DNA of 64,000 bases from Skeletonema tropicum (lineage: Eukaryota > Bacillariophyta > Thalassiosirophyceae > Thalassiosirales > Thalassiosiraceae): the NCBI GenBank assembly GCA_037178625.1, contig CM074146.1, positions 1-64,000 of the forward strand. The letters are read 5' to 3'. The notes beneath the pieces are model-generated. The model did not search any database. It saw only the letters and a program-made list of their open reading frames with translations, and was not told the origin of the DNA. Positions 8,444 to 57,800 of the stretch are shown in pieces. The position numbers were made by a program, and so were the translations under genes. How positions within the stretch are numbered: the stretch's first letter is position 1; every line of letters starts with the position of its first letter.

Positions 8444-8444
8444 G

Positions 8445-12504: not shown

Positions 12505-13330
12505 TGTTCCAAAAAGGCGAGTGGTGGGTGCCGCTTTACAATATGTATGTATGATACTAACGCGGATGCCTGTCTCATACCGAGGTCACAACGACATGAA
12601 ATATCCCATAAAAGCCCCCTAAATACCCGACTTCGGGCAGTACAACTGTATACAACTGCATTAATTCCCGCCCGCCCGCCAAAACGACAAAAATCAAACG
12701 AGTCTTGTGGCGGTAGGTAGCACGCGATTTTATCGTCATCGGCTCGTTCACAATTCACATGGCTGGCATGTGGAATGGCTGGTTTGATCAAACTGATTCG
12801 CCGGCCGGCCATTGCCCGTTACCATTGTACACTTCGTTGCATGCATGCATGCTACGTACTGTGTATTTGAAACGTGAGAGAGATCGGACACGTTGATCAT
12901 CTGGGCGGTGCGTTCGTTAGAAGCTGCTATACTAGCTGGCGGCCGTTGCTAATTCATCAATCAATCAATTAATTAGTACTGTGCGCCTCAACTTTTTTGA
13001 GAAGGAAAATCTCGATCGATCGAGCCGAGCGTTGCGATCGACCAATACATCATCCTACCAACTCTCTATATATAGTTGACCGTTGATATACTATAATATT
13101 TAGTACTTCTACACAGCAGTGCAGTGCAGTGCAGACTACACAGCTATATAAGTCTAAGTATCGTCCAGCCGGCCGCCCGAGCAATATATATAAATTATTG
13201 ACCGTCAATCCAAAAGTGCAGCTAGAGCCAGCTCGCTAGCCAGAGCCAGCCAAGACGCACAGTACAGTACAGTACAGAAGCGCAGCAAAACCAGCAAAAC
13301 GAAACGACACAAAACGGCGGGCCTAATAGA

Positions 13331-14087
13331 ATGATGAAAAAGAAATCCGCCAGCAGCACAGCGAGGAGCATGTCAATGATGTCACGCAATAATACTAAGC
13401 AACAATTATTACCGCAGCATCAGCCTACTCCGCAGCCAATGATGTCGAATAATGAAAATGATGGTGAGTAGTTCGTACGATATTGAATGTTGACTATTGA
13501 CTATTGAATATTGATACGTTCTCTCATTCTTTCCAGCAGCAAATAATTGTATTGCGCCACCGCTGTCAGACAATGATTACTCAAATAATCATCAGAATCA
13601 TCAGAATCATCATCATTACTCCTCTCAAAAGCAGCACAACCAAACTAATAATAATAATAATATGATGATGGTGAATAATAATCCGCCATCACAAACACCA
13701 CTGCCGCCATCGTCGTCACTGCAACAATATCAAGTTACTACTACTACTAATGGAGGAGGAGGAGGAGGGCTGAATCTGAATAATAGTAATGTGAATTCCA
13801 CAGTATTATATCAACAACATCAACAGAGCAATTATCAGCAGCAGGGCAATACGAATACGAATTCGAATTCGAATACGAATACTCCACAACAACAGCAGCA
13901 GCAGCAGCAGCATCATCATTTGAGCAGCAGTAGTAGCAGTAGTCAGCAATATGTACAATTGAATCAAGGGGGGTGGTGGCAAATGACAGCGACAGATTCG
14001 GGACGCAAACGACAATCAACTGAATGTCTATCTGCTGGAATGATGTACAATGAGAGAGTGTGTGATGAAAGAGAGAGAGAGAGATGA
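13331..14087 (+). pseudogene. Truncated shugoshin 5' copy 1
   Basis: Exon 1 (13331-13463), intron 1, and exon 2 from 13537 up to the GGGGGG at 13966-13971 match the intact gene. The frame then continues into foreign sequence (WWQMTATDSGRKRQSTECLS...) and stops at 14087. The predicted product, about 227 residues, has the Q/N/H-rich leader but neither the coiled coil nor the SGO motif. Eight Gln in the main run. The promoter with its TATA-like words is retained, so it could be transcribed. Confidence 0.85.
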
Positions 14088-14184
14088 TAATAGACTAACA
14101 TCATAAGTAATCACTACTTAAACTTAACGCACTAACTCCTTCGAGATTCAGCAAATCATTGATATCGTGTCTTGTAGTCTAGTC

Positions 14185-15333
14185 GTCGTATCAAGACGAT
14201 GAGTGGTGCTTTGGAAAGCTCTCGTTGCGCTCTATCGATTGATACAATACTATATTCAACGTCAAATCACGGACAGGAGTCAAATACCGATCTTTTGTCA
14301 ATCGACTCAACTAAATTGACCCCTATACTATATTTCGAATATCAAGCTCCAAATGAAAATCGACATTCCAGAAGATTTTGATCCAAATCGACAATGAGAG
14401 GACGATTCGAATCGTCATTCCAAGCTCTATCGATTAAAACAATAAACACTGCTCGTCCTCGCTGCCGCTCGCACTCGCAACAAGAATTGTAGCATCATCC
14501 ACCACTTCGCCTTCGGCTCACTCCATTGTAGTGGCGTGTTGGCGGTGGTTCAATAATAGAAGTAATCCATTAAATTCCATTCTCTCCCTTCGGTCGGCTC
14601 GCCACATCATTGCCGCCACGCACAACAATCAACCATCATCACCACCGCCGACAACATGATGAACTATTGACACTTCGCCTTGCGGCTCGCTTTGTTGTTT
14701 GTTGCGGTGGTGGTATAACACTAATACAACCAAAAAGTCCACCACCGCAGCAACCAATACTCGATACTACACCTGAGTCGAATTGGTAATAATGATAATG
14801 ACTGTTGCTGTGGCGGTGGATGTGAATGCGGTTATTGTTGCGGCGGTGGTGATGATGAGTGTGTTTGTATTATTGTTAAGGTGGGAGCGAGCGACCTTAC
14901 TTCTCTCTATAATCAATATATGAACCAATATCAGATAAAGTGGTATGATACACTGATGAAGGTGGTCGTTCTTCAGCGAAGCGTTTGATGCGCGAGTAGT
15001 CAAGCTCATGGATCGCTTTTTCGCGAGGCCCTCGGCCGAGCAGTGATTATCATTTTGTTATTTTGATACTAATGATAATGATGGTACTAATCGAATCGGG
15101 GTGAAGAGAGCTTTCTAACGGTGGTCAAGTTGTCGATTTTGGTCAAATTCGGACCCTAATGGTGAAAATCTGGCTGTGGCGGTGGATCTTGGATCTGGCC
15201 GTACTGGACACTTTCTAGACCTGTTTTTGACCGGATCGATTGGTACAAAGTCGTCAAATGAGGCTCATTACACCTCTAATCGATAGAGCACGATGAGAGC
15301 TTTCCAAAACGCTACTCATCGTCTTGATACGAC
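14185..15333. mobile_element. TIR transposon, array unit 1 (1.15 kb)
   Basis: The terminal inverted repeats are 56 bp and match at 50 positions; all six mismatches are transitions. They begin GTCGTATCAAGACGATGAGT. The interior is rich in GGCGGTGG, the palindromic GAGGCCCTCGGCCGAG and the GCTCGC/GCGAGC words, with no transposase-like frame. It is thus non-autonomous. No clear target-site duplication is visible. Unit 1 lacks the 9-bp GAAGCGAGC present in the other units. Confidence 0.75.
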
Positions 15334-16263
15334 CGCTAGGCTAGGAGGAAAGATACTTACTTATCGGCCATTGTCATTTTCAGCTTGTCATGATGATGAT
15401 GTTGTGTGCGTGCGGCGTGCGTGGTGCTTGTTCCAAAAAGGCGAGTGGAGGGTGCCGCTTTACAATATGTATGTATGATACTAACGCGGATGCCTGTCTC
15501 ATACCGAGGTCACAACGACATGAAATATCCCATAAAAGCCCCCTAAATACTTATTGTACCCGACTTCGGGCAGTACAACTGTATACAACTGCATTAATTC
15601 CCGCCCGCCCGCCAAAACGACAAAAATCAAACGAGTCTTGTGGCGGTAGGTAGCACGCGATTTTATCGTCATCGGCTCGTTCACAATTCACATGGCTGGC
15701 ATGTGGAATGGCTGGTTTGATCAAACTGATTCGCCGGCCGGCCATTGCCCGTTACCATTGTACACTTCGTTGCATGCATGCATGCTACGTACTGTGTATT
15801 TGAAACGTGAGAGAGATCGGACACGTTGATCATCTGGGCGGTGCGTTCGTTAGAAGCTGCTATACTAGCTGGCGGCCGTTGCTAATTCATCAATCAATCA
15901 ATTAATTAGTACTGTGCGCCTCAACTTTTTTGAGAAGGAAAATCTCGATCGATCGAGCCGAGCGTTGCGATCGACCAATACATCATCCTACCAACTCTCT
16001 ATATATAGTTGACCGTTGATATACTATAATATTTAGTACTTCTACACAGCAGTGCAGTGCAGTGCAGACTACACAGCTATATAAGTCTAAGTATCGTCCA
16101 GCCGGCCGCCCGAGCAATATATATAAATTATTGACCGTCAATCCAAAAGTGCAGCTAGAGCCAGCTCGCTAGCCAGAGCCAGCCAAGACGCACAGTACAG
16201 TACAGTACAGAAGCGCAGCAAAACCAGCAAAACGAAACGACACAAAACGGCGGGCCTAATAGA

Positions 16264-17026
16264 ATGATGAAAAAGAAATCCGCCAGCAGCACAGCGAGGA
16301 GCATGTCAATGATGTCACGCAATAATACTAAGCAACAATTATTACCGCAGCATCAGCCTACTCCGCAGCCAATGATGTCGAATAATGAAAATGATGGTGA
16401 GTAGTTCGTACGATATTGAATGTTGACTATTGACTATTGAATATTGATACGTTCTCTCATTCTTTCCAGCAGCAAATAATTGTATTGCGCCACCGCTGTC
16501 AGACAATGATTACTCAAATAATCATCAGAATCATCAGAATCATCATCATTACTCCTCTCAAAAGCAGCACAACCAAACTAATAATAATAATAATATGATG
16601 ATGGTGAATAATAATCCGCCATCACAAACACCACTGCCGCCATCGTCGTCACTGCAACAATATCAAGTTACTACTACTACTAATGGAGGAGGAGGAGGAG
16701 GGCTGAATCTGAATAATAGTAATGTGAATTCCACAGTATTATATCAACAACATCAACAGAGCAATTATCAGCAGCAGGGCAATACGAATACGAATTCGAA
16801 TTCGAATACGAATACTCCACAACAACAGCAGCAGCAGCAGCAGCAGCAGCATCATCATTTGAGCAGCAGTAGTAGCAGTAGTCAGCAATATGTACAATTG
16901 AATCAAGGGGGGTGGTGGCAAATGACAGCGACAGATTCGGGACGCAAACGACAATCAACTGAATGTCTATCTGCTGGAATGATGTACAATGAGAGAGTGT
17001 GTGATGAAAGAGAGAGAGAGAGATGA
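16264..17026 (+). pseudogene. Truncated shugoshin 5' copy 2
   Basis: Same structure as copy 1; ten Gln in the main run. Stop at 17026. Confidence 0.85.
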
Positions 17027-17123
17027 TAATAGACTAACATCATAAGTAATCACTACTTAAACTTAACGCACTAACTCCTTCGAGATTCAGCAAATCATTG
17101 ATATCGTGTCTTGTAGTCTAGTC

Positions 17124-18281
17124 GTCGTATCAAGACGATGAGTGGTGCTTTGGAAAGCTCTCGTTGCGCTCTATCGATTGATACAATACTATATTCAACG
17201 TCAAATCACGGACAGGAGTCAAATACCGATCTTTTGTCAATCGACTCAACTAAATTGACCCCTATACTATATTTCGAATATCAAGCTCCAAATGAAAATC
17301 GACATTCCAGAAGATTTTGATCCAAATCGACAATGAGAGGACGATTCGAATCGTCATTCCAAGCTCTATCGATTAAAACAATAAACACTGCTCGTCCTCG
17401 CTGCCGCTCGCACTCGCAACAAGAATTGTAGCATCATCCACCACTTCGCCTTCGGCTCACTCCATTGTAGTGGCGTGTTGGCGGTGGTTCAATAATAGAA
17501 GTAATCCATTAAATTCCATTCTCTCCCTTCGGTCGGCTCGCCACATCATTGCCGCCACGCACAACAATCAACCATCATCACCACCGCCGACAACATGATG
17601 AACTATTGACACTTCGCCTTGCGGCTCGCTTTGTTGTTTGTTGCGGTGGTGGTATAACACTAATACAACCAAAAAGTCCACCACCGCAGCAACCAATACT
17701 CGATACTACACCTGAGTCGAATTGGTAATAATGATAATGACTGTTGCTGTGGCGGTGGATGTGAATGCGGTTATTGTTGCGGCGGTGGTGATGATGAGTG
17801 TGTTTGTATTATTGTTAAGGTGGGAGCGAGCGAAGCGAGCGACCTTACTTCTCTCTATAATCAATATATGAACCAATATCAGATAAAGTGGTATGATACA
17901 CTGATGAAGGTGGTCGTTCTTCAGCGAAGCGTTTGATGCGCGAGTAGTCAAGCTCATGGATCGCTTTTTCGCGAGGCCCTCGGCCGAGCAGTGATTATCA
18001 TTTTGTTATTTTGATACTAATGATAATGATGGTACTAATCGAATCGGGGTGAAGAGAGCTTTCTAACGGTGGTCAAGTTGTCGATTTTGGTCAAATTCGG
18101 ACCCTAATGGTGAAAATCTGGCTGTGGCGGTGGATCTTGGATCTGGCCGTACTGGACACTTTCTAGACCTGTTTTTGACCGGATCGATTGGTACAAAGTC
18201 GTCAAATGAGGCTCATTACACCTCTAATCGATAGAGCACGATGAGAGCTTTCCAAAACGCTACTCATCGTCTTGATACGAC
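17124..18281. mobile_element. TIR transposon, array unit 2
   Basis: Second copy of the element at 14185-15333, with the GAAGCGAGC insertion. Confidence 0.75.
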
Positions 18282-19196
18282 CGCTAGGCTAGGAGGAAAG
18301 ATACTTACTTATCGGCCATTGTCATTTTCAGCTTGTCATGATGATGATGTTGTGTGCGTGCGGCGTGCGTGGTGCTTGTTCCAAAAAGGCGAGTGGAGGG
18401 TGCCGCTTTACAATATGTATGTATGATACTAACGCGGATGCCTGTCTCATACCGAGGTCACAACGACATGAAATATCCCATAAAAGCCCCCTAAATACCC
18501 GACTTCGGGCAGTACAACTGTACAACTGCATTAATTCCCGCCCGCCAAAACGACAAAAATCAAACGAGTCTTGTGGCGGTAGGTAGCACGCGATTTTATC
18601 GTCATCGGCTCGTTCACAATTCACATGGCTGGCATGTGGAATGGCTGGTTTGATCAAACTGATTCGCCGGCCGGCCATTGCCCGTTACCATTGTACACTT
18701 CGTTGCATGCATGCATGCTACGTACTGTGTATTTGAAACGTGAGAGAGATCGGACACGTTGATCATCTGGGCGGTGCGTTCGTTAGAAGCTGCTATACTA
18801 GCTGGCGGCCGTTGCTAATTCATCAATCAATCAATTAATTAGTACTGTGCGCCTCAACTTTTTTGAGAAGGAAAATCTCGATCGATCGAGCCGAGCGTTG
18901 CGATCGACCAATACATCATCCTACCAACTCTCTATATATAGTTGACCGTTGATATACTATAATATTTAGTACTTCTACACAGCAGTGCAGTGCAGTGCAG
19001 ACTACACAGCTATATAAGTCTAAGTATCGTCCAGCCGGCCGCCCGAGCAATATATATAAATTATTGACCGTCAATCCAAAAGTGCAGCTAGAGCCAGCTC
19101 GCTAGCCAGAGCCAGCCAAGACGCACAGTACAGTACAGTACAGAAGCGCAGCAAAACCAGCAAAACGAAACGACACAAAACGGCGGGCCTAATAGA

Positions 19197-19959
19197 ATGA
19201 TGAAAAAGAAATCCGCCAGCAGCACAGCGAGGAGCATGTCAATGATGTCACGCAATAATACTAAGCAACAATTATTACCGCAGCATCAGCCTACTCCGCA
19301 GCCAATGATGTCGAATAATGAAAATGATGGTGAGTAGTTCGTACGATATTGAATGTTGACTATTGACTATTGAATATTGATACGTTCTCTCATTCTTTCC
19401 AGCAGCAAATAATTGTATTGCGCCACCGCTGTCAGACAATGATTACTCAAATAATCATCAGAATCATCAGAATCATCATCATTACTCCTCTCAAAAGCAG
19501 CACAACCAAACTAATAATAATAATAATATGATGATGGTGAATAATAATCCGCCATCACAAACACCACTGCCGCCATCGTCGTCACTGCAACAATATCAAG
19601 TTACTACTACTACTAATGGAGGAGGAGGAGGAGGGCTGAATCTGAATAATAGTAATGTGAATTCCACAGTATTATATCAACAACATCAACAGAGCAATTA
19701 TCAGCAGCAGGGCAATACGAATACGAATTCGAATTCGAATTCGAATACGAATACTCCACAACAACAGCAGCAGCAGCAGCAGCATCATCATTTGAGCAGC
19801 AGTAGTAGCAGTAGTCAGCAATATGTACAATTGAATCAAGGGGGGTGGTGGCAAATGACAGCGACAGATTCGGGACGCAAACGACAATCAACTGAATGTC
19901 TATCTGCTGGAATGATGTACAATGAGAGAGTGTGTGATGAAAGAGAGAGAGAGAGATGA
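19197..19959 (+). pseudogene. Truncated shugoshin 5' copy 3
   Basis: As copy 1, with eight Gln but one extra Asn-Ser pair in the NSNSN tract. The upstream block lacks the ACTTATTGTA insertion and one CCCG repeat (18497-18545). Confidence 0.85.
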
Positions 19960-20056
19960 TAATAGACTAACATCATAAGTAATCACTACTTAAACTTAAC
20001 GCACTAACTCCTTCGAGATTCAGCAAATCATTGATATCGTGTCTTGTAGTCTAGTC

Positions 20057-21214
20057 GTCGTATCAAGACGATGAGTGGTGCTTTGGAAAGCTCTCGTTGC
20101 GCTCTATCGATTGATACAATACTATATTCAACGTCAAATCACGGACAGGAGTCAAATACCGATCTTTTGTCAATCGACTCAACTAAATTGACCCCTATAC
20201 TATATTTCGAATATCAAGCTCCAAATGAAAATCGACATTCCAGAAGATTTTGATCCAAATCGACAATGAGAGGACGATTCGAATCGTCATTCCAAGCTCT
20301 ATCGATTAAAACAATAAACACTGCTCGTCCTCGCTGCCGCTCGCACTCGCAACAAGAATTGTAGCATCATCCACCACTTCGCCTTCGGCTCACTCCATTG
20401 TAGTGGCGTGTTGGCGGTGGTTCAATAATAGAAGTAATCCATTAAATTCCATTCTCTCCCTTCGGTCGGCTCGCCACATCATTGCCGCCACGCACAACAA
20501 TCAACCATCATCACCACCGCCGACAACATGATGAACTATTGACACTTCGCCTTGCGGCTCGCTTTGTTGTTTGTTGCGGTGGTGGTATAACACTAATACA
20601 ACCAAAAAGTCCACCACCGCAGCAACCAATACTCGATACTACACCTGAGTCGAATTGGTAATAATGATAATGACTGTTGCTGTGGCGGTGGATGTGAATG
20701 CGGTTATTGTTGCGGCGGTGGTGATGATGAGTGTGTTTGTATTATTGTTAAGGTGGGAGCGAGCGAAGCGAGCGACCTTACTTCTCTCTATAATCAATAT
20801 ATGAACCAATATCAGATAAAGTGGTATGATACACTGATGAAGGTGGTCGTTCTTCAGCGAAGCGTTTGATGCGCGAGTAGTCAAGCTCATGGATCGCTTT
20901 TTCGCGAGGCCCTCGGCCGAGCAGTGATTATCATTTTGTTATTTTGATACTAATGATAATGATGGTACTAATCGAATCGGGGTGAAGAGAGCTTTCTAAC
21001 GGTGGTCAAGTTGTCGATTTTGGTCAAATTCGGACCCTAATGGTGAAAATCTGGCTGTGGCGGTGGATCTTGGATCTGGCCGTACTGGACACTTTCTAGA
21101 CCTGTTTTTGACCGGATCGATTGGTACAAAGTCGTCAAATGAGGCTCATTACACCTCTAATCGATAGAGCACGATGAGAGCTTTCCAAAACGCTACTCAT
21201 CGTCTTGATACGAC
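20057..21214. mobile_element. TIR transposon, array unit 3
   Basis: Third array copy of the element at 14185-15333. Confidence 0.75.
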
Positions 21215-22149
21215 CGCTAGGCTAGGAGGAAAGATACTTACTTATCGGCCATTGTCATTTTCAGCTTGTCATGATGATGATGTTGTGTGCGTGCGGCGTG
21301 CGTGGTGCTTGTTCCAAAAAGGCGAGTGGAGGGTGCCGCTTTACAATATGTATGTATGATACTAACGCGGATGCCTGTCTCATACCGAGGTCACAACGAC
21401 ATGAAATATCCCATAAAAGCCCCCTAAATACTTATTGTACCCGACTTCGGGCAGTACAACTGTATACAACTGCATTAATTCCCGCCCGCCCGCCAAAACG
21501 ACAAAAATCAAACGAGTCTTGTGGCGGTAGGTAGCACGCGATTTTATCGTCATCGGCTCGTTCACAATTCACATGGCTGGCATGTGGAATGGCTGGTTTG
21601 ATCAAACTGATTCGCCGGCCGGCCATTGCCCGTTACCATTGTACACTTCGTTGCATGCATGCATGCTACGTACTGTGTATTTGAAACGTGAGAGAGATCG
21701 GACACGTTGATCATCTGGGCGGTGCGTTCGTTAGAAGCTGCTATACTAGCTGGCGGCCGTTGCTAATTCATCAATCAATCAATTAATTAGTACTGTGCGC
21801 CTCAACTTTTTTGAGAAGGAAAATCTCGATCGATCGAGCCGAGCGTTGCGATCGACCAATACATCATCCTACCAACTCTCTATATATAGTTGACCGTTGA
21901 TATACTATAATATTTAGTACTTCTACACAGCAGTGCAGTGCAGTGCAGACTACACAGCTATATAAGTCTAAGTATCGTCCAGCCGGCCGCCCGAGCAATA
22001 TATAAATTATAAATTATTGACCGTCAATCCAAAAGTGCAGCTAGAGCCAGCTCGCTAGCCAGAGCCAGCCAAGACGCACAGTACAGTACAGTACAGAAGC
22101 GCAGCAAAACCAGCAAAACGAAACGACACAAAACGGCGGGCCTAATAGA

Positions 22150-22909
22150 ATGATGAAAAAGAAATCCGCCAGCAGCACAGCGAGGAGCATGTCAATGATG
22201 TCACGCAATAATACTAAGCAACAATTATTACCGCAGCATCAGCCTACTCCGCAGCCAATGATGTCGAATAATGAAAATGATGGTGAGTAGTTCGTACGAT
22301 ATTGAATGTTGACTATTGACTATTGAATATTGATACGTTCTCTCATTCTTTCCAGCAGCAAATAATTGTATTGCGCCACCGCTGTCAGACAATGATTACT
22401 CAAATAATCATCAGAATCATCAGAATCATCATCATTACTCCTCTCAAAAGCAGCACAACCAAACTAATAATAATAATAATATGATGATGGTGAATAATAA
22501 TCCGCCATCACAAACACCACTGCCGCCATCGTCGTCACTGCAACAATATCAAGTTACTACTACTACTAATGGAGGAGGAGGAGGAGGGCTGAATCTGAAT
22601 AATAGTAATGTGAATTCCACAGTATTATATCAACAACATCAACAGAGCAATTATCAGCAGCAGGGCAATACGAATACGAATTCGAATTCGAATACGAATA
22701 CTCCACAACAACAGCAGCAGCAGCAGCAGCAGCATCATCATTTGAGCAGCAGTAGTAGCAGTAGTCAGCAATATGTACAATTGAATCAAGGGGGGTGGTG
22801 GCAAATGACAGCGACAGATTCGGGACGCAAACGACAATCAACTGAATGTCTATCTGCTGGAATGATGTACAATGAGAGAGTGTGTGATGAAAGAGAGAGA
22901 GAGAGATGA
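22150..22909 (+). pseudogene. Truncated shugoshin 5' copy 4
   Basis: Nine Gln. The AT-rich promoter word reads ATATATAAATTATAAATTAT here, an extra repeat shared (slightly altered) with copies 6 and 7. Confidence 0.85.
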
Positions 22910-23006
22910 TAATAGACTAACATCATAAGTAATCACTACTTAAACTTAACGCACTAACTCCTTCGAGATTCAGCAAATCATTGATATCGTGTCTTGTAGT
23001 CTAGTC

Positions 23007-24171
23007 GTCGTATCAAGACGATGAGTGGTGCTTTGGAAAGCTCTCGTTGCGCTCTATCGATTGATACAATACTATATTCAACGTCAAATCACGGACAGGA
23101 GTCAAATACCGATCTTTTGTCAATCGACTCAACTAAATTGACCCCTATACTATATTTCGAATATCAAGCTCCAAATGAAAATCGACATTCCAGAAGATTT
23201 TGATCCAAATCGACAATGAGAGGACGATTCGAATCGTCATTCCAAGCTCTATCGATTAAAACAATAAACACTGCTCGTCCTCGCTGCCGCTCGCACTCGC
23301 AACAAGAATTGTAGCATCATCCACCACTTCGCCTTCGGCTCACTCCATTGTAGTGGCGTGTTGGCGGTGGTTCAATAATAGAAGTAATCCATTAAATTCC
23401 ATTCTCTCCCTTCGGTCGGCTCGCCACATCATTGCCGCCACGCACAACAATCAACCATCATCACCACCGCCGACAACATGATGAACTATTGACACTTCGC
23501 CTTGCGGCTCGCTTTGTTGTTTGTTGCGGTGGTGGTATAACACTAATACAACCAAAAAGTCCACCACCGCAGCAACCAATACTCGATACTACACCTGAGT
23601 CGAATTGGTAATAATGATAATGACTGTTGCTGTGGCGGTGGATGTGAATGCGGTTATTGTTGCGGCGGTGGTGATGATGAGTGTGTTTGTATTATTGTTA
23701 AGGTGGGAGCGAGCGAAGCGAGCGACCTTACTTCTCTCTATAATCAATATATGAACCAATATCAGATAAAGTGGTATGATACACTGATGAAGGTGGTCGT
23801 TCTTCAGCGAAGCGTTTGATGCGCGAGTAGTCAAGCTCATGGATCGCTTTTTCGCGAGGCCCTCGGCCGAGCAGTGATTATCATTTTGTTATTTTGATAC
23901 TAATGATAATGATGGTACTAATCGAATCGGGGTGAAGAGAGCTTTCTAACGGTGGTCAAGTTGTCGATTTTGGTCAAATTCGGACCCTAATGGTGAAAAT
24001 CTGGCTGTGGCGGTGGATCTTGGATCTGGCCGTACTGGACACTTTCTAGACCTGTTTTTGACCGGATCGATTGGTACAAAGTCGTCAAATGAGGCTCATT
24101 ACACCTCTAATCGATAGAGCATAGAGCACGATGAGAGCTTTCCAAAACGCTACTCATCGTCTTGATACGAC
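23007..24171. mobile_element. TIR transposon, array unit 4
   Basis: Fourth copy. The right TIR has a duplicated ATAGAGC word (24115-24127), also seen in units 6 and 7. Confidence 0.75.
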
Positions 24172-25861: not shown

Positions 25862-25958
25862 TAATAGACTAACATCATAAGTAATCACTACTTAAACTTA
25901 ACGCACTAACTCCTTCGAGATTCAGCAAATCATTGATATCGTGTCTTGTAGTCTAGTC

Positions 25959-27116
25959 GTCGTATCAAGACGATGAGTGGTGCTTTGGAAAGCTCTCGTT
26001 GCGCTCTATCGATTGATACAATACTATATTCAACGTCAAATCACGGACAGGAGTCAAATACCGATCTTTTGTCAATCGACTCAACTAAATTGACCCCTAT
26101 ACTATATTTCGAATATCAAGCTCCAAATGAAAATCGACATTCCAGAAGATTTTGATCCAAATCGACAATGAGAGGACGATTCGAATCGTCATTCCAAGCT
26201 CTATCGATTAAAACAATAAACACTGCTCGTCCTCGCTGCCGCTCGCACTCGCAACAAGAATTGTAGCATCATCCACCACTTCGCCTTCGGCTCACTCCAT
26301 TGTAGTGGCGTGTTGGCGGTGGTTCAATAATAGAAGTAATCCATTAAATTCCATTCTCTCCCTTCGGTCGGCTCGCCACATCATTGCCGCCACGCACAAC
26401 AATCAACCATCATCACCACCGCCGACAACATGATGAACTATTGACACTTCGCCTTGCGGCTCGCTTTGTTGTTTGTTGCGGTGGTGGTATAACACTAATA
26501 CAACCAAAAAGTCCACCACCGCAGCAACCAATACTCGATACTACACCTGAGTCGAATTGGTAATAATGATAATGACTGTTGCTGTGGCGGTGGATGTGAA
26601 TGCGGTTATTGTTGCGGCGGTGGTGATGATGAGTGTGTTTGTATTATTGTTAAGGTGGGAGCGAGCGAAGCGAGCGACCTTACTTCTCTCTATAATCAAT
26701 ATATGAACCAATATCAGATAAAGTGGTATGATACACTGATGAAGGTGGTCGTTCTTCAGCGAAGCGTTTGATGCGCGAGTAGTCAAGCTCATGGATCGCT
26801 TTTTCGCGAGGCCCTCGGCCGAGCAGTGATTATCATTTTGTTATTTTGATACTAATGATAATGATGGTACTAATCGAATCGGGGTGAAGAGAGCTTTCTA
26901 ACGGTGGTCAAGTTGTCGATTTTGGTCAAATTCGGACCCTAATGGTGAAAATCTGGCTGTGGCGGTGGATCTTGGATCTGGCCGTACTGGACACTTTCTA
27001 GACCTGTTTTTGACCGGATCGATTGGTACAAAGTCGTCAAATGAGGCTCATTACACCTCTAATCGATAGAGCACGATGAGAGCTTTCCAAAACGCTACTC
27101 ATCGTCTTGATACGAC
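25959..27116. mobile_element. TIR transposon, array unit 5
   Basis: Fifth copy, without the ATAGAGC duplication. Confidence 0.75.
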
Positions 27117-28053
27117 CGCTAGGCTAGGAGGAAAGATACTTACTTATCGGCCATTGTCATTTTCAGCTTGTCATGATGATGATGTTGTGTGCGTGCGGCG
27201 TGCGTGGTGCTTGTTCCAAAAAGGCGAGTGGAGGGTGCCGCTTTACAATATGTATGTATGATACTAACGCGGATGCCTGTCTCATACCGAGGTCACAACG
27301 ACATGAAATATCCCATAAAAGCCCCCTAAATACTTATTGTACCCGACTTCGGGCAGTACAACTGTATACAACTGCATTAATTCCCGCCCGCCCGCCAAAA
27401 CGACAAAAATCAAACGAGTCTTGTGGCGGTAGGTAGCACGCGATTTTATCGTCATCGGCTCGTTCACAATTCACATGGCTGGCATGTGGAATGGCTGGTT
27501 TGATCAAACTGATTCGCCGGCCGGCCATTGCCCGTTACCATTGTACACTTCGTTGCATGCATGCATGCTACGTACTGTGTATTTGAAACGTGAGAGAGAT
27601 CGGACACGTTGATCATCTGGGCGGTGCGTTCGTTAGAAGCTGCTATACTAGCTGGCGGCCGTTGCTAATTCATCAATCAATCAATTAATTAGTACTGTGC
27701 GCCTCAACTTTTTTGAGAAGGAAAATCTCGATCGATCGAGCCGAGCGTTGCGATCGACCAATACATCATCCTACCAACTCTCTATATATAGTTGACCGTT
27801 GATATACTATAATATTTAGTACTTCTACACAGCAGTGCAGTGCAGTGCAGACTACACAGCTATATAAGTCTAAGTATCGTCCAGCCGGCCGCCCGAGCAA
27901 TATATATAAATTATAAATTATTGACCGTCAATCCAAAAGTGCAGCTAGAGCCAGCTCGCTAGCCAGAGCCAGCCAAGACGCACAGTACAGTACAGTACAG
28001 AAGCGCAGCAAAACCAGCAAAACGAAACGACACAAAACGGCGGGCCTAATAGA

Positions 28054-28810
28054 ATGATGAAAAAGAAATCCGCCAGCAGCACAGCGAGGAGCATGTCAAT
28101 GATGTCACGCAATAATACTAAGCAACAATTATTACCGCAGCATCAGCCTACTCCGCAGCCAATGATGTCGAATAATGAAAATGATGGTGAGTAGTTCGTA
28201 CGATATTGAATGTTGACTATTGACTATTGAATATTGATACGTTCTCTCATTCTTTCCAGCAGCAAATAATTGTATTGCGCCACCGCTGTCAGACAATGAT
28301 TACTCAAATAATCATCAGAATCATCAGAATCATCATCATTACTCCTCTCAAAAGCAGCACAACCAAACTAATAATAATAATAATATGATGATGGTGAATA
28401 ATAATCCGCCATCACAAACACCACTGCCGCCATCGTCGTCACTGCAACAATATCAAGTTACTACTACTACTAATGGAGGAGGAGGAGGAGGGCTGAATCT
28501 GAATAATAGTAATGTGAATTCCACAGTATTATATCAACAACATCAACAGAGCAATTATCAGCAGCAGGGCAATACGAATACGAATTCGAATTCGAATACG
28601 AATACTCCACAACAACAGCAGCAGCAGCAGCAGCATCATCATTTGAGCAGCAGTAGTAGCAGTAGTCAGCAATATGTACAATTGAATCAAGGGGGGTGGT
28701 GGCAAATGACAGCGACAGATTCGGGACGCAAACGACAATCAACTGAATGTCTATCTGCTGGAATGATGTACAATGAGAGAGTGTGTGATGAAAGAGAGAG
28801 AGAGAGATGA
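28054..28810 (+). pseudogene. Truncated shugoshin 5' copy 6
   Basis: Eight Gln; extended AT-rich promoter word (27901-27920). Confidence 0.85.
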
Positions 28811-28907
28811 TAATAGACTAACATCATAAGTAATCACTACTTAAACTTAACGCACTAACTCCTTCGAGATTCAGCAAATCATTGATATCGTGTCTTGTAG
28901 TCTAGTC

Positions 28908-30072
28908 GTCGTATCAAGACGATGAGTGGTGCTTTGGAAAGCTCTCGTTGCGCTCTATCGATTGATACAATACTATATTCAACGTCAAATCACGGACAGG
29001 AGTCAAATACCGATCTTTTGTCAATCGACTCAACTAAATTGACCCCTATACTATATTTCGAATATCAAGCTCCAAATGAAAATCGACATTCCAGAAGATT
29101 TTGATCCAAATCGACAATGAGAGGACGATTCGAATCGTCATTCCAAGCTCTATCGATTAAAACAATAAACACTGCTCGTCCTCGCTGCCGCTCGCACTCG
29201 CAACAAGAATTGTAGCATCATCCACCACTTCGCCTTCGGCTCACTCCATTGTAGTGGCGTGTTGGCGGTGGTTCAATAATAGAAGTAATCCATTAAATTC
29301 CATTCTCTCCCTTCGGTCGGCTCGCCACATCATTGCCGCCACGCACAACAATCAACCATCATCACCACCGCCGACAACATGATGAACTATTGACACTTCG
29401 CCTTGCGGCTCGCTTTGTTGTTTGTTGCGGTGGTGGTATAACACTAATACAACCAAAAAGTCCACCACCGCAGCAACCAATACTCGATACTACACCTGAG
29501 TCGAATTGGTAATAATGATAATGACTGTTGCTGTGGCGGTGGATGTGAATGCGGTTATTGTTGCGGCGGTGGTGATGATGAGTGTGTTTGTATTATTGTT
29601 AAGGTGGGAGCGAGCGAAGCGAGCGACCTTACTTCTCTCTATAATCAATATATGAACCAATATCAGATAAAGTGGTATGATACACTGATGAAGGTGGTCG
29701 TTCTTCAGCGAAGCGTTTGATGCGCGAGTAGTCAAGCTCATGGATCGCTTTTTCGCGAGGCCCTCGGCCGAGCAGTGATTATCATTTTGTTATTTTGATA
29801 CTAATGATAATGATGGTACTAATCGAATCGGGGTGAAGAGAGCTTTCTAACGGTGGTCAAGTTGTCGATTTTGGTCAAATTCGGACCCTAATGGTGAAAA
29901 TCTGGCTGTGGCGGTGGATCTTGGATCTGGCCGTACTGGACACTTTCTAGACCTGTTTTTGACCGGATCGATTGGTACAAAGTCGTCAAATGAGGCTCAT
30001 TACACCTCTAATCGATAGAGCATAGAGCACGATGAGAGCTTTCCAAAACGCTACTCATCGTCTTGATACGAC
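28908..30072. mobile_element. TIR transposon, array unit 6
   Basis: Sixth copy, with the ATAGAGC duplication in the right TIR. Confidence 0.75.
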
Positions 30073-31009
30073 CGCTAGGCTAGGAGGAAAGATACTTACT
30101 TATCGGCCATTGTCATTTTCAGCTTGTCATGATGATGATGTTGTGTGCGTGCGGCGTGCGTGGTGCTTGTTCCAAAAAGGCGAGTGGAGGGTGCCGCTTT
30201 ACAATATGTATGTATGATACTAACGCGGATGCCTGTCTCATACCGAGGTCACAACGACATGAAATATCCCATAAAAGCCCCCTAAATACTTATTGTACCC
30301 GACTTCGGGCAGTACAACTGTATACAACTGCATTAATTCCCGCCCGCCCGCCAAAACGACAAAAATCAAACGAGTCTTGTGGCGGTAGGTAGCACGCGAT
30401 TTTATCGTCATCGGCTCGTTCACAATTCACATGGCTGGCATGTGGAATGGCTGGTTTGATCAAACTGATTCGCCGGCCGGCCATTGCCCGTTACCATTGT
30501 ACACTTCGTTGCATGCATGCATGCTACGTACTGTGTATTTGAAACGTGAGAGAGATCGGACACGTTGATCATCTGGGCGGTGCGTTCGTTAGAAGCTGCT
30601 ATACTAGCTGGCGGCCGTTGCTAATTCATCAATCAATCAATTAATTAGTACTGTGCGCCTCAACTTTTTTGAGAAGGAAAATCTCGATCGATCGAGCCGA
30701 GCGTTGCGATCGACCAATACATCATCCTACCAACTCTCTATATATAGTTGACCGTTGATATACTATAATATTTAGTACTTCTACACAGCAGTGCAGTGCA
30801 GTGCAGACTACACAGCTATATAAGTCTAAGTATCGTCCAGCCGGCCGCCCGAGCAATATATATAAATTATAAATTATTGACCGTCAATCCAAAAGTGCAG
30901 CTAGAGCCAGCTCGCTAGCCAGAGCCAGCCAAGACGCACAGTACAGTACAGTACAGAAGCGCAGCAAAACCAGCAAAACGAAACGACACAAAACGGCGGG
31001 CCTAATAGA

Positions 31010-31772
31010 ATGATGAAAAAGAAATCCGCCAGCAGCACAGCGAGGAGCATGTCAATGATGTCACGCAATAATACTAAGCAACAATTATTACCGCAGCATC
31101 AGCCTACTCCGCAGCCAATGATGTCGAATAATGAAAATGATGGTGAGTAGTTCGTACGATATTGAATGTTGACTATTGACTATTGAATATTGATACGTTC
31201 TCTCATTCTTTCCAGCAGCAAATAATTGTATTGCGCCACCGCTGTCAGACAATGATTACTCAAATAATCATCAGAATCATCAGAATCATCATCATTACTC
31301 CTCTCAAAAGCAGCACAACCAAACTAATAATAATAATAATATGATGATGGTGAATAATAATCCGCCATCACAAACACCACTGCCGCCATCGTCGTCACTG
31401 CAACAATATCAAGTTACTACTACTACTAATGGAGGAGGAGGAGGAGGGCTGAATCTGAATAATAGTAATGTGAATTCCACAGTATTATATCAACAACATC
31501 AACAGAGCAATTATCAGCAGCAGGGCAATACGAATACGAATTCGAATTCGAATACGAATACTCCACAACAACAGCAGCAGCAGCAGCAGCAGCAGCATCA
31601 TCATTTGAGCAGCAGTAGTAGCAGTAGTCAGCAATATGTACAATTGAATCAAGGGGGGTGGTGGCAAATGACAGCGACAGATTCGGGACGCAAACGACAA
31701 TCAACTGAATGTCTATCTGCTGGAATGATGTACAATGAGAGAGTGTGTGATGAAAGAGAGAGAGAGAGATGA
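31010..31772 (+). pseudogene. Truncated shugoshin 5' copy 7
   Basis: Ten Gln; extended AT-rich promoter word. This is the copy next to the intact gene. Confidence 0.85.
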
Positions 31773-31869
31773 TAATAGACTAACATCATAAGTAATCACT
31801 ACTTAAACTTAACGCACTAACTCCTTCGAGATTCAGCAAATCATTGATATCGTGTCTTGTAGTCTAGTC

Positions 31870-33034
31870 GTCGTATCAAGACGATGAGTGGTGCTTTGGA
31901 AAGCTCTCGTTGCGCTCTATCGATTGATACAATACTATATTCAACGTCAAATCACGGACAGGAGTCAAATACCGATCTTTTGTCAATCGACTCAACTAAA
32001 TTGACCCCTATACTATATTTCGAATATCAAGCTCCAAATGAAAATCGACATTCCAGAAGATTTTGATCCAAATCGACAATGAGAGGACGATTCGAATCGT
32101 CATTCCAAGCTCTATCGATTAAAACAATAAACACTGCTCGTCCTCGCTGCCGCTCGCACTCGCAACAAGAATTGTAGCATCATCCACCACTTCGCCTTCG
32201 GCTCACTCCATTGTAGTGGCGTGTTGGCGGTGGTTCAATAATAGAAGTAATCCATTAAATTCCATTCTCTCCCTTCGGTCGGCTCGCCACATCATTGCCG
32301 CCACGCACAACAATCAACCATCATCACCACCGCCGACAACATGATGAACTATTGACACTTCGCCTTGCGGCTCGCTTTGTTGTTTGTTGCGGTGGTGGTA
32401 TAACACTAATACAACCAAAAAGTCCACCACCGCAGCAACCAATACTCGATACTACACCTGAGTCGAATTGGTAATAATGATAATGACTGTTGCTGTGGCG
32501 GTGGATGTGAATGCGGTTATTGTTGCGGCGGTGGTGATGATGAGTGTGTTTGTATTATTGTTAAGGTGGGAGCGAGCGAAGCGAGCGACCTTACTTCTCT
32601 CTATAATCAATATATGAACCAATATCAGATAAAGTGGTATGATACACTGATGAAGGTGGTCGTTCTTCAGCGAAGCGTTTGATGCGCGAGTAGTCAAGCT
32701 CATGGATCGCTTTTTCGCGAGGCCCTCGGCCGAGCAGTGATTATCATTTTGTTATTTTGATACTAATGATAATGATGGTACTAATCGAATCGGGGTGAAG
32801 AGAGCTTTCTAACGGTGGTCAAGTTGTCGATTTTGGTCAAATTCGGACCCTAATGGTGAAAATCTGGCTGTGGCGGTGGATCTTGGATCTGGCCGTACTG
32901 GACACTTTCTAGACCTGTTTTTGACCGGATCGATTGGTACAAAGTCGTCAAATGAGGCTCATTACACCTCTAATCGATAGAGCATAGAGCACGATGAGAG
33001 CTTTCCAAAACGCTACTCATCGTCTTGATACGAC
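31870..33034. mobile_element. TIR transposon, array unit 7
   Basis: Seventh copy, about 930 bp upstream of the intact shugoshin ATG. The intact gene therefore also has this element upstream. Confidence 0.75.
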
Positions 33035-33777
33035 CGCTAGGCTAGGAGGAAAGATACTTACTTATCGGCCATTGTCATTTTCAGCTTGTCATGATGATGA
33101 TGTTGTGTGCGTGCGGCGTGCGTGGTGCTTGTTCCAAAAAGGCGAGTGGAGGGTGCCGCTTTACAATATGTATGTATGATACTAACGCGGATGCCTGTCT
33201 CATACCGAGGTCACAACGACATGAAATATCCCATAAAAGCCCCCTAAATACTTATTGTACCCGACTTCGGGCAGTACAACTGTATACAACTGCATTAATT
33301 CCCGCCCGCCCGCCAAAACGACAAAAATCAAACGAGTCTTGTGGCGGTAGGTAGCACGCGATTTTATCGTCATCGGCTCGTTCACAATTCACATGGCTGG
33401 CATGTGGAATGGCTGGTTTGATCAAACTGATTCGCCGGCCGGCCATTGCCCGTTACCATTGTACACTTCGTTGCATGCATGCATGCTACGTACTGTGTAT
33501 TTGAAACGTGAGAGAGATCGGACACGTTGATCATCTGGGCGGTGCGTTCGTTAGAAGCTGCTATACTAGCTGGCGGCCGTTGCTAATTCATCAATCAATC
33601 AATTAATTAGTACTGTGCGCCTCAACTTTTTTGAGAAGGAAAATCTCGATCGATCGAGCCGAGCGTTGCGATCGACCAATACATCATCCTACCAACTCTC
33701 TATATATAGTTGACCGTTGATATACTATAATATTTAGTACTTCTACACAGCAGTGCAGTGCAGTGCAGACTACACAG

Positions 33778-33786
33778 CTATATAAG
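33778..33786 (+). promoter_or_regulatory. TATA-like box of the shugoshin gene
   Basis: CTATATAAG lies about 180 bp before the ATG. A second AT-rich word (ATATATAAATTAT) lies at 33821-33833. Both are repeated in all seven truncated copies. The start site is not determined. Confidence 0.4.
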
Positions 33787-33964
33787 TCTAAGTATCGTCC
33801 AGCCGGCCGCCCGAGCAATATATATAAATTATTGACCGTCAATCCAAAAGTGCAGCTAGAGCCAGCTCGCTAGCCAGAGCCAGCCAAGACGCACAGTACA
33901 GTACAGTACAGAAGCGCAGCAAAACCAGCAAAACGAAACGACACAAAACGGCGGGCCTAATAGA

Positions 33965-34514
33965 ATGATGAAAAAGAAATCCGCCAGCAGCACAGCGAGG
34001 AGCATGTCAATGATGTCACGCAATAATACTAAGCAACAATTATTACCGCAGCATCAGCCTACTCCGCAGCCAATGATGTCGAATAATGAAAATGATGGTG
34101 AGTAGTTCGTACGATATTGAATGTTGACTATTGACTATTGAATATTGATACGTTCTCTCATTCTTTCCAGCAGCAAATAATTGTATTGCGCCACCGCTGT
34201 CAGACAATGATTACTCAAATAATCATCAGAATCATCATCATTACTCCTCTCAAAAGCAGCACAACCAAACTAATAATAATAATAATATGATGATGGTGAA
34301 TAATAATCCGCCATCACAAACACCACTGCCGCCATCGTCGTCACTGCAACAATATCAAGTTACTACTACTACTAATGGAGGAGGAGGAGGAGGGCTGAAT
34401 CTGAATAATAGTAATGTGAATTCCACAGTATTATATCAACAACATCAACAGAGCAATTATCAGCAGCAGGGCAATACGAATACGAATTCGAATTCGAATA
34501 CGAATACTCCACAA

Positions 34515-34546
<32 letters not shown>

Positions 34547-37238
34547 TCATCATTTGAGCAGCAGTAGTAGCAGTAGTCAGCAATATGTACAATTGAATCA
34601 AGGGGGGCAAGTTCATACAATGACACGGTTGCAGCAACAACAGCAGCAGCAGAGGCAAGATAATGTTGCTAATCATCATCATCATCTTCCTGCCATGAAT
34701 CATAATGGTGGTGGTGGTGGTACGAATAGTGTGAATATGAATATGAATAAACGGCAAGAGTTGAATGGCAGTGTTGGTCAGCAGCAGCAGCATCATCATC
34801 ATCATCAATTGGAAATGGATCGAGCGGCATTGACTCAAAAGAATCATAAGTTGGCCAAGGAGTTGGTAAGTTTGTTGTGTTGTGCTGTCTCGTTCGTGTG
34901 GTACTGTCTCTTATTGATGAGGAGATGAATTGGGGGGGGGGGATGGATGGATGTTATCATACCTGTGCATCGCCTTCACTGTTGACTGTTTGTTTGGGAT
35001 GTGGGGGGGGAGCAAGAGAACAATGATTTTGACCCAAAGTCACAATGCAAATGCCATGTATCATGATGACACTACTCTACTCTTCCAATTCATTATGTTT
35101 TTCTCTCTCACGTGCATCACGATGAAATACTCACACATGTTTTTCTCTTCACACTCTCTATACAGAGCGATTTACGAGTCAAACACCGTGAAGAAACCAA
35201 GGTAGTCTCCCGCCTCACCATGGAAAATATGAATCTAGCCTCACGATGCCGACAGGCTATTTCCGAGGCTGCCGATCTCAAACGGAAAGTTGTGGGGTAT
35301 GAAAAGCGTCATGGTGATTTTGGGAATTTGCAAAAGGAGGTTTTGTTGCTGAGGAGGCAGATTGAGCGGCAGCATGGAAGTGGAAGTGGAAGTGGTGGAT
35401 CTGGGGTGGAAAAGAGTGGCAGTGGTGGGGGTGGGTTGGATAAGAGTAGTAATAGTCGAAGGAATCGAAGTACATCGCCCAAGGGTGGCAAGCGTAGTGG
35501 TAATCATGGGAGTGACGGGGCTTCATCCAATGCCAATAACACTCCTGTCGATGAGAAAAAGAAGAGAAAGGCAGCAGCAGCAGCAGCAGCGACGAATGGA
35601 TCATCACTGACGTTGGAGACAAAGAATAGTACCGAGACGACGGATCTTGATCGCATCATGGCGAAAGAATTATTCAAGAATAATGGTGCAGCTGCATCTG
35701 CTTCAACTGCGGGCAGTGGCGGTGGAGAAGGAGGTATATCAGATGGTAGTAATGCTAGTAGTGGCAATGCTGCCGAGAAGAAAGATGGGAATACTAATGC
35801 AGTGATGAAGAAGTTTCAAGAGCTGAATATCTCCACTACTGCCGCTGCCGCCAGTTCTTCTTCAGCTACGGCCAATACCAAATCTGGAGGTGGGAGCAAG
35901 GTGACATCTTCGTCTACTTTGGCGAACAATGCTATGTCGTCGAGTAAGCGTTCCAATACCACAACCACAACATCGTCAGGGACGGATAGTACCAGCAATA
36001 GCAATAGCAACAATATCTCTTCGGCCAATACGAAAATTCCAATCAGTGTAACAACGAGTAGTGCAACACAAAAAGATGATGATGAATTTGATGCCGAAAT
36101 TGATATGGTGGGCTTCTTTGCGAAATCATCTCAGACGAAACTCGGTGCTTCCTCCTCCGCCTCGGCTAACAACAGCAGCAGTGACAGCAGTGGAGCCGAC
36201 GGTGTTCCACCCTCTTCGAAGCACTCCCGTTCACACATTACCCACAAGTTGAAAAAGACCGAGACGGACGATCACATGCCCGAAGAGTTGGTTGGCTCCG
36301 CTGATTTACTTTCTCCGTCTAATAAATCCTCCTCCGAGAAGAATGTCGGGGACAATCTACTCAGCAGCCTCGATGCCTTTGAAGCATCATTTGCAAGTGC
36401 CTTTCCTGAAACATCATTCTCCATCAAGAGTGAGGTACCCTCGACAACACAGCTCGACATGTCATTTGATGTTCCTGTATTTGATCCATTCTTCAAAAGT
36501 CCCGTCAACAAAGATAGAGAAGCAACGTCGACATCACTTCATCAATCACCACCAAAATCGAAATCAGCCATGTCGGGAGTTTCTTCGGGGAGTGGAAATT
36601 CCAATTCTCATAAGGACGGTATGAAGAGTCAGCTGAAAGATTTATTCCCCGACTCGGCCCTCACTACAAGTCCGAAGCGTGGGTTGGATTTGACATTCGA
36701 CTCGACATTTCCAGACGTGGACATTGGCGGTGGAAGCAGCAGCAGCAATAGCAATACCAACAAGAGTGGTAAGGGCAAATCATCTCTCTCTGCGGATAAG
36801 CTGGATAGTGCCTTCTCTCGAGCTCATGCGACGCCAACAGCATCGACAAAGACGGCTGGTGGCAGCAGTGCGGGTGGCGGTGGTGGCAAATCATCATCAT
36901 CATCTAATCGTCCGCCACCATTGGATATGAGTGCAGAGATTGAACAACTCGACGCACTTGCATCGGCTAATACCGAAAAGGCAGAAGGGGGAGAGAATAG
37001 AAAGCGATCCGTTCGCAAGGTCAAAACACCATTATCCTACGCTGAGCCATCTATTTCACAAAAACTGAGGAGAGGAGATGTCCTCTTTCCCAAAATAGAT
37101 GCAGACCGAAAGTTGGAATTGGAGGCAAAGCGATCAAAGAGCGGTGGAGCTGGTACGACAGATCTTGATAGAATTATGAGTGAGCATTTCTCTGTGAGCA
37201 ATAATACTAATAAGAAGGACGGGGCAGCACCGTCATAG
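33965..37238 (+). CDS. SGO: Shugoshin, intact three-exon gene, 966 aa
   Basis: Shugoshins protect centromeric cohesin from premature removal, usually by recruiting PP2A, and bind centromeric chromatin. Exons 33965-34097, 34171-34865 and 35166-37238 join in frame (2901 nt). Residues 1-255 are low-complexity N/Q/H/S, with an 11-Gln run. Residues ~258-345 form a heptad-rich coiled coil beginning LEMDRAALTQKNHKLAKEL, split by intron 2. A long Ser/Gly/Asn-rich acidic middle follows. Residues ~888-918 carry the basic SGO motif (RKRSVRKVK, then SYAEPSISQKLRRGD), which matches the family signature S/N-Y-x-E-P-S-L/I-x-x-K-L-R-R. TTDLDRIM occurs twice (~434 and ~939). A double ATG opens exon 1, and the CAGCAG acceptor of intron 1 permits NAGNAG splicing. 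The gene ends the tandem array of its own 5' fragments. Confidence 0.85.
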
Positions 37239-57716: not shown

Positions 57717-57800
57717 AATATATATATGAATATTACTGTTTACTCCTCATTTACACTGTTTCATTCACCTTTCTCTTGCTATCTTGGCTTGTATTGGTCG

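What the first reader, a model, noticed from the sequence alone, without database searches (positions are those of the whole stretch)
12505..37238. Tandem array of seven promoter-plus-N-terminus copies ahead of an intact shugoshin gene
Seen: seven ~2.94-kb units repeat the upstream region, exon 1, intron 1 and part of exon 2 of the gene at 33965-37238. They stop at one identical breakpoint (GGGGGG, 34607 in the intact gene). Known: the coiled coil and C-terminal basic motif are needed for shugoshin dimerisation/PP2A and chromatin binding, and all copies lack both. Inference: the array could supply promoter decoys, small RNAs, or Q/N/H-rich N-terminal peptides that influence shugoshin dose. It could also be a passive unstable amplification.
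Basis: partly seen in the sequence, partly recalled or inferred. Interest (0 to 1): 0.9.

Follow-up and report, generated by a model that had tools for sequence, protein, structure and literature searches.

The report
Element-linked arrays of gene front-halves
In a marine diatom, a repeated DNA element sits between head-to-tail copies of the front part of a cell-division gene, and the same arrangement recurs at other genes, so the array looks like the product of a recurrent element-linked duplication process rather than a device special to this gene.

Summary
The array is real. In Skeletonema tropicum (contig C20), seven truncated copies of the promoter, exon 1, intron 1 and part of exon 2 precede an intact shugoshin-like gene. 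Each ~2.94-kb unit is ~1.3 kb of gene front plus a ~1.6-kb dispersed repeat element. A likely allelic contig (C62) has only two truncated copies and a different junction, so the GGGGGG breakpoint is haplotype-specific. The window holds a second case (DAG-kinase-like gene, four truncated copies). Capped searches with the element gave 22 multi-copy clusters of 41, against 1 of 39 for a Pif1-ORF control repeat. At 13 array loci with a gene-like ORF, the ORF is in sense with the element at 12. Inside expanded arrays elements are nearly identical; at array edges and in short arrays neighbouring elements are only 72-87% identical while the host fragments beside them are 99.6-100% identical. Best reading: recombination or template switching between different members of one element family duplicated gene fronts; unequal exchange expanded single lineages; gene conversion homogenised host DNA. 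Capture by the element is a live rival, since shugoshin scraps sit beside the element on three other chromosomes. A regulatory role is untested. New variant of a known kind.

The parts
12250..12504 (+). leftmost element remnant (right-end 'E' part), a different lineage from the element in the units; fused to the first gene fragment
   Evidence: 12075-12504 is 94.9% to C62:70984-71391; its E is 71.9% to that of the first unit
12505..13973 (+). truncated gene fragment copy 1 (its first ~150 nt are the element's right end; then upstream region, exon 1, intron 1, part of exon 2; the same holds for copies 2-7)
13974..15428 (+). element copy 1 (L-F-E) between gene fragments
15429..16912 (+). truncated gene fragment copy 2
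16913..18376 (+). element copy 2
18377..19845 (+). truncated gene fragment copy 3
19846..21309 (+). element copy 3
21310..22795 (+). truncated gene fragment copy 4
22796..24266 (+). element copy 4
24267..25747 (+). truncated gene fragment copy 5
25748..27211 (+). element copy 5
27212..28696 (+). truncated gene fragment copy 6
28697..30167 (+). element copy 6
30168..31658 (+). truncated gene fragment copy 7
31659..33285 (+). element copy 7: left end near 31675, F with left inverted repeat 31864-31925, E with right inverted repeat ~32984-33044, right end reaching ~33285
33286..34607 (+). host part of the repeated segment in the intact gene (upstream region, exon 1, intron 1, part of exon 2)
33965..37238 (+). 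intact shugoshin-like gene (exons ~33965-34097, ~34171-34865, ~35166-37238)
54171..64000 (+). second array of the same kind: truncated N-terminal copies of a DAG-kinase-like gene with 694-nt E sub-repeats; continues to the intact ORF at contig position ~72953-75154, outside the window
   Evidence: Pfam DAGK_cat below its cut-off on the C62 allele

Best explanation
The array is one of many element-linked tandem duplications in this genome. SHOWN: each unit is a dispersed ~1.6-kb element (conserved left part F and right part E with facing inverted repeats) plus a gene front; at array edges and in short arrays, neighbouring elements are of different lineages while the host DNA between them is almost identical; the switch lies inside the element ends; copy number and junction differ between two likely allelic contigs. 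INFERRED: one family member lay upstream of the gene in sense and the left end of another lay in the coding sequence, perhaps on the other haplotype. Non-allelic recombination or template switching between them duplicated the gene front, leaving a chimeric element at the junction and an intact gene downstream. Unequal exchange then expanded one lineage, and gene conversion keeps the host segments, including the functional gene's own front half, identical within a haplotype. No function need be assumed; truncated transcripts, if any, would be by-products.
For: Dispersed family in clusters of many periods; control repeat 1 of 39 clusters. At seven neighbouring pairs, chosen because their elements differed, host DNA is 99.6-100% identical and E cores 71.9-87.1% (C62 two pairs, C20 left edge, C20:321k, C9:3067k, DAGK array, C10:409k). 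Identity steps up inside the element ends. Inside expanded arrays neighbouring E cores are 99-100% identical (shugoshin 6 of 6 pairs, C15 10 of 10, C18 5 of 5, C22 2 of 2, C14 2 of 2), with divergent ones at the last unit of C12 (95.2%) and C6 (85.6%): the pattern expected if inner units were copied by unequal exchange. The same element lineage on the two contigs is 97-99% identical, so elements are not simply fast-evolving. C20's left edge joins a flank matching C62:64383-65188 to a stretch matching C62:70984-71391, a mosaic expected from element-element exchange with unit loss. Contig-specific variants are shared by array copies and gene: 0-2 substitutions within, 8-11 between. Intron 1 is kept.
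Against: Simple recombination between randomly inserted elements does not predict 12 of 13 ORFs in sense with the element. E cores sharing only ~74% identity are poor substrates for ordinary homologous recombination. The short sequence GACAATCAAC lies at the left side of the element at 11 loci, suggesting a defined end. Shugoshin scraps joined to the element's left part occur on C14, C22 and C2, so host DNA also travelled with the element or its sequence. Two elements of C62 share one junction but differ inside, which needs an extra conversion step. No empty-site or pre-duplication allele was found, so true ends and target duplication are unknown. Draft odds of 0.50 were lowered to 0.48 after one search showed that inner elements are alike, which the capture model also predicts.
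Confidence: 0.48

Rival explanations
1. The element itself captures the neighbouring gene front and amplifies it: a one-ended, rolling-circle or alternative-ends transposition reaction starts at the element's left end, reads through the right end into the gene, stops at a chance point in the coding sequence, and yields head-to-tail (element + gene front) copies, some landing elsewhere.
For: ORF in sense at 12 of 13 loci; GACAATCAAC at the left side of the element at 11 loci; shugoshin scraps joined to the element's left part on C14, C22 and C2; near-identical elements inside expanded arrays. Maize Ac reversed-ends transposition makes tandem direct duplications (PMC3744419, PMC4270019: listing and abstract starts only).
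Against: Does not by itself explain elements of different lineages between near-identical host fragments at edges and in short arrays. No transposase or replication protein was noticed in the element; ends and target duplications not determined.
Confidence: 0.29
2. The arrays are maintained because they do something: tandem promoters, decoys, small-RNA sources or N-terminal peptides that tune the dose of the downstream gene, or silent copies that feed gene conversion into the gene.
For: Full gene shown downstream of the truncated copies at two loci (shugoshin-like, DAGK-like), and longer ORFs at others; open frames kept in 9 of 9 truncated shugoshin-like copies; sense bias; front half of the gene homogenised with the array.
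Against: Open frames follow from recent homogenisation. Copy number differs strongly between the contigs (7 against 2; 4 against about 11 E-bearing units), which argues against tightly tuned dose. Some arrays hold a 3' gene part (C18) or an antisense ORF (C20:1015k). No expression data.
Confidence: 0.13
3. Assembly artefact: long-read assembly multiplied a single unit.
For: Noisy PacBio reads assembled with MECAT2 (PMC11032307, passages) can miscount long arrays.
Against: Units differ in repeat lengths; a second contig has its own two-copy version with a different junction; many arrays with unrelated host DNA; the control repeat does not cluster. Exact counts remain uncertain.
Confidence: 0.05

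Closest known systems
Tandem direct duplications by alternative (reversed-ends) transposition of maize Ac/Ds
   Same: Element-driven tandem direct duplication of adjacent gene DNA (titles and abstract starts seen)
   Different: Here arrays reach 20 or more places at many loci, elements at array edges are of different lineages, and no transposase or target-site hallmark was shown
Element-element (Alu-Alu type) non-allelic recombination duplications (recalled, no call)
   Same: Chimeric element at the junction of a direct duplication lying between two family members
   Different: Recurrent multi-copy arrays, sense bias, and a shared sequence near the junction
Transposable-element-derived tandem repeats and satellites (PMC6947457 review; Cassandra arrays PMC7215508; listings only)
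   Same: Dispersed element found in tandem arrays of varying copy number
   Different: Unit is element plus a gene-specific host fragment, so loci differ in unit sequence and period
Gene-fragment-carrying transposons (Pack-MULEs, Helitrons; recalled)
   Same: Gene parts associated with an element; some shugoshin scraps dispersed beside it
   Different: The fragment lies beside, not inside, the element and stays in tandem at its native locus
Concerted evolution of tandem gene families (recalled)
   Same: Host segments homogenised within a haplotype, including the functional gene's front
   Different: Only one full gene; edge elements stay highly divergent

Membership tests
Shugoshin | Shugoshin_C basic motif | tested here: inconclusive
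   Own ORF: no Pfam hit at 0.01. Relative P0002 (82% identical over 95%) scores below cut-off. S. marinoi relative P0006 (69%) has no Pfam hit but is named 'Shugoshin C-terminal domain-containing protein' in UniRef. The more distant relative P0021 passes the cut-off; P0049 does not.
Shugoshin | N-terminal coiled coil with PP2A binding | not testable with these tools
   Coiled-coil-like stretch in exon 2 end and exon 3 seen by eye only
Simple segmental tandem duplication without an element | Unit made of contiguous local DNA only | tested here: not met
   About half of each unit is a dispersed repeat
Element-element recombination duplication | Different or chimeric element lineages flanking near-identical duplicated host DNA | tested here: met
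   Seven selected pairs, six of them profiled along the boundary; not met inside expanded arrays, where elements are 99-100% alike
Element-element recombination duplication | A pre-duplication allele with two separate insertions | not tested
   No such allele was seen among the fetched loci; no search was aimed at it
Terminal-inverted-repeat DNA transposon | Inverted repeats near both ends | tested here: met
   F start against E end, 43-63 nt, 76-91%
Terminal-inverted-repeat DNA transposon | Target-site duplication and exact ends | tested here: inconclusive
   one element examined, no convincing flanking duplication
Helitron | Rep/helicase, TC...CTRR ends with hairpin | not tested
   No systematic test; the Pif1-like ORF at 5838-7490 (below the Pfam cut-off) belongs to another, dispersed repeat
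Retrocopy | Introns removed | tested here: not met
   Intron 1 kept in all 7 C20 and both C62 truncated copies

The most novel reading that the evidence does not exclude
An active element family in this diatom turns the front ends of single-copy genes into tandem arrays in a directed way: it works in sense relative to the gene, joins a defined left end (GACAATCAAC) to a point in the coding sequence, and leaves an intact gene downstream fed by a homogenised set of promoter-plus-N-terminus copies. This would be a recurrent, locus-specific source of regulatory and N-terminal variation that differs between haplotypes.
Probability: 0.18. Interest if true: 0.88.

Novelty: new variant of a known kind. 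Interest (0 to 1): 0.62.

Why it matters
One element family is linked to arrays of gene fronts at many loci, with strong differences between likely haplotypes, in a planktonic diatom. It suggests how divergent element copies can seed gene-sized satellites while host segments are kept identical, and gives many natural replicates to test whether upstream promoter-plus-N-terminus arrays alter gene output. It also warns that gene counts and copy-number calls in such genomes may include truncated fronts.

Tried and rejected
Assembly artefact: rejected as the main explanation (second contig, unit-specific lengths), though counts may be off. Spliced-RNA origin: rejected (intron and upstream DNA kept). 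Known structured RNA or tRNA in the unit: Rfam gave only two weak mir-1538 matches at 11831-11883, outside the units and far below cut-off; ARAGORN found no tRNA. 'Fast-evolving spacer' as the reason for divergent elements: rejected, because the same element lineage is 97-99% identical between the contigs. Looking for target-site duplications on one element (C3:4.54 Mb) led nowhere. Protein search with the truncated DAGK-like ORF found nothing; full-length relatives fall outside that tool's length limits, so it says little. Literature searches (titles and abstract starts only) returned no paper that describes such arrays; the S. tropicum genome paper was read only in passages, which give TE and tandem-repeat totals without these arrays.
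Full report
WHAT IS THERE. The window is bases 1-64000 of contig C20 of a 78.4-Mb, 125-contig assembly. Close named protein relatives are Skeletonema, and the length of contig C22 (1,559,287) equals StrChr22 of Skeletonema tropicum strain CNS00166 in PMC11032307 (passages read). The array is exact: seven truncated gene fragments, then the intact gene, at 2933-2962-nt spacing. The gene is shugoshin-like through its relatives: 69% identity to an S. marinoi protein named 'Shugoshin C-terminal domain-containing', and a more distant relative that passes the Pfam cut-off (P0021). The gene itself gives no Pfam hit. S. marinoi proteins support three exons.

THE UNIT HOLDS AN ELEMENT. About half of each unit is a dispersed repeat. 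Its left part F and right part E carry inverted repeats of 43-63 nt facing each other. Relatives of E (72-82% identical) recur at many loci with different periods. I pooled the hits of these four searches (two short fragment rows dropped). Each search scores about 40 of 1266-1343 candidates, so counts are lower bounds and favour long arrays. They give 136 places in 36 clusters (neighbours at most 7 kb apart, strand not considered), of which 19 have two or more places. The F search (three short fragment rows dropped) adds five clusters, three of them multi-copy, so 22 of 41; some are allelic or duplicated copies of each other, and two pairs (C8, C11:82k) are 5.9-6.8 kb apart and were not read. 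The Pif1-ORF repeat of the same window, used as a control, gives 1 multi-copy cluster of 39; it is younger (98-100% identical copies) and smaller (139 candidates), so it is an imperfect control. The first ~150 nt of the 'gene' segment also match other arrays (C5:4.59 Mb, C10:0.57 Mb) and so belong to the element's right end.

OTHER GENES. In the same window, from 54171 on, a second array precedes an intact 738-aa DAG-kinase-like ORF at ~72953-75154, with four truncated N-terminal copies, three read as ORFs and the fourth (~63.4 kb) seen by alignment. Pfam DAGK_cat is below its cut-off on the C62 allele (E 9e-4). I fetched loci. At 13 array loci with a gene-like ORF (longest ORF, no annotation) in the unit or just after the last E, the ORF is in sense with the element at 12 (shugoshin, DAGK-like, C22:584k, C15:1-30k, C14, C12, C6, C18, C20:321k, C9, C5, C15:370k) and antisense at one (C20:1015k). 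At C5 and C15:370k only the array end was read, so a gene fragment inside the units is not shown there. A full downstream gene is shown for the shugoshin-like and DAGK-like loci; at C20:321k, C9 and C5 the longer downstream ORF runs to the edge of the stretch, and at C12, C14 and C15:1-30k the far end was not fetched. C18 holds the 3' part of a PQ-loop gene rather than the front, and at C6 the element lies between two parts of a prenyltransferase gene. C10:409k had no gene-like ORF in sense and was not counted. Among E loci without an array, the ORF just downstream is in sense at C3 (two copies) and antisense at C10:2.82 Mb; C8:3.02 Mb, C3:4.54 Mb and C2:3.69 Mb were unclear. Of the seven loci fetched, three (C10:409k, C20:319k, C9:3065k) show duplicated flanking DNA and four do not within the stretch fetched; C10 and C9 were already visible as pairs.

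TWO CONTIGS. C62, most likely an unplaced allelic contig (the genome paper says such sequences may remain), carries the same gene at 98.7% identity with two truncated copies. Its junction is ...GGGGGGCAAGTTCATACAATGAC then the element; C20 has GGGGGG then TGGTGGCAAATGAC and the element. For the DAGK-like gene, C62 has 12 E places, 11 of them at ~2.52-kb spacing before the last one ahead of the intact ORF, against four truncated copies on C20; the contents of the C62 units other than the last were not read. For the shugoshin-like segment, copies 2-8 on C20 differ by 0 substitutions and copy 1 by 1; C62 copies differ by 0-2; the contigs differ by 8-11, close to the reported 0.73% heterozygosity. 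So the host segments, including the gene's own front, are homogenised within a haplotype.

THE KEY OBSERVATION. At seven neighbouring pairs, which I chose because their elements differed, host segments are 99.6-100% identical but E cores are 73.9% (C62, two pairs), 71.9% (left edge on C20), 76.2% (C20:321k), 87.1% (C9), 76.1% (DAGK array) and 83.4% (C10:409k) identical. Identity steps from about 60-90% to ~100% inside the element ends. Inside expanded arrays the picture is different: neighbouring E cores are 99-100% identical at shugoshin (6 of 6 pairs), C15 (10 of 10), C18 (5 of 5 read), C22 (2 of 2), C14 (2 of 2), one of two at C12 and one of two at C6; the exceptions are the last units of C12 (95.2%) and C6 (85.6%), and one group inside the DAGK array (76.1% to both sides, the other 5 of 7 pairs 100%). 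The same element lineage compared between C20 and C62 is 97-99% identical. Thus arrays contain expanded identical units plus edge or odd units whose elements are different family members, beside nearly identical host DNA.

MECHANISM. This is what recombination or template switching between non-allelic members would leave: a direct duplication with a chimeric element at the junction and an intact gene at the end, followed by unequal exchange of inner units and gene conversion. The C20 left flank is itself a mosaic that matches two separate places of C62, as expected from element-element exchange with loss of a unit. Against a purely passive account stand the 12:1 sense bias (two-sided binomial about 0.003; loci not randomly drawn), GACAATCAAC at the left side of the element at 11 loci (C20/C62, C15, C22:583k, C22:1208k, C14, C12, DAGK array, C20:321k, C9, C2, C5; not seen at that side of C6, C18, C10:409k, C3:4.54 Mb or C20:1015k), and shugoshin scraps joined to the element's left part on C14, C22 (two copies of one duplicated stretch) and C2 (81-90% identical), with further shugoshin pieces on C2. 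These keep alive a model in which the element itself captures gene fronts. Its superfamily, ends and target duplication remain unknown; one attempt failed.

FUNCTION. All nine truncated shugoshin-like copies keep an open frame of 227-229 aa through the junction, but near-identity makes this uninformative about selection. No expression or small-RNA data were available.

NOVELTY. Element-associated tandem duplications are known (maize Ac reversed-ends transposition, PMC3744419 and PMC4270019, listing and abstract starts only; Alu-type events, recalled). What appears new is the scale and form: many loci, each with its own gene part, one element family, sense bias, and homogenised host DNA beside divergent edge elements. 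Searches (listings) returned no description of it.

Noticed in passing
window 54171-64000 (continues to C20:75154): Second array of the same kind ahead of a DAG-kinase-like gene, with nested 694-nt E sub-repeats (groups of 2, 6, 1, 1 and 2 E copies; the fourth group is of a different lineage).
   Followed up: yes
window 40780-43811 and 46217-51252: Large inverted duplication (arms 97-99.6% identical) carrying two copies of a small secreted-protein-like ORF (41221-41904 and 50203-50817) with different C-terminal ends.
   Followed up: no
window 5838-7490 and 3794-4258: Pif1-like helicase ORF (below the Pfam cut-off) of a young dispersed repeat with many 98-100% copies genome-wide, and a partial inverted relative nearby; used as a control.
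   Followed up: partly
C14:323.7k and 326.7k, C22:1208.6k and 1261.6k, C2:3694.9k and 3706.6-3707.9k: Scraps of the shugoshin-like gene (81-90% identical) on other chromosomes; those on C14, C22 and C2:3694.9k are joined to the element's left part, as if carried with it.
   Followed up: partly
left side of the element at C20, C62, C15, C22, C14, C12, C5, C9 and C2: Short sequence (T/C)GACAATCAAC(C/T) near the gene-fragment side of the element at 11 loci; possibly its left end or a signal of its own. In C12 its TGA is the stop codon of the truncated frame.
   Followed up: partly
C18:1950-2001k: About 50-kb array (24 E places scored, ~2.1-kb period) of the 3' part of a PQ-loop gene, with a longer 311-aa ORF at one end (2000656-2001588).
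   Followed up: partly
window 8439-8895 and 9877-10337: Separate 461-nt direct duplication (98.7%) left of the array.
   Followed up: no
L029 (C6:3446.9-3447.5k): A stretch reads N, apparently withheld or a gap, beside an array; not pursued.
   Followed up: no
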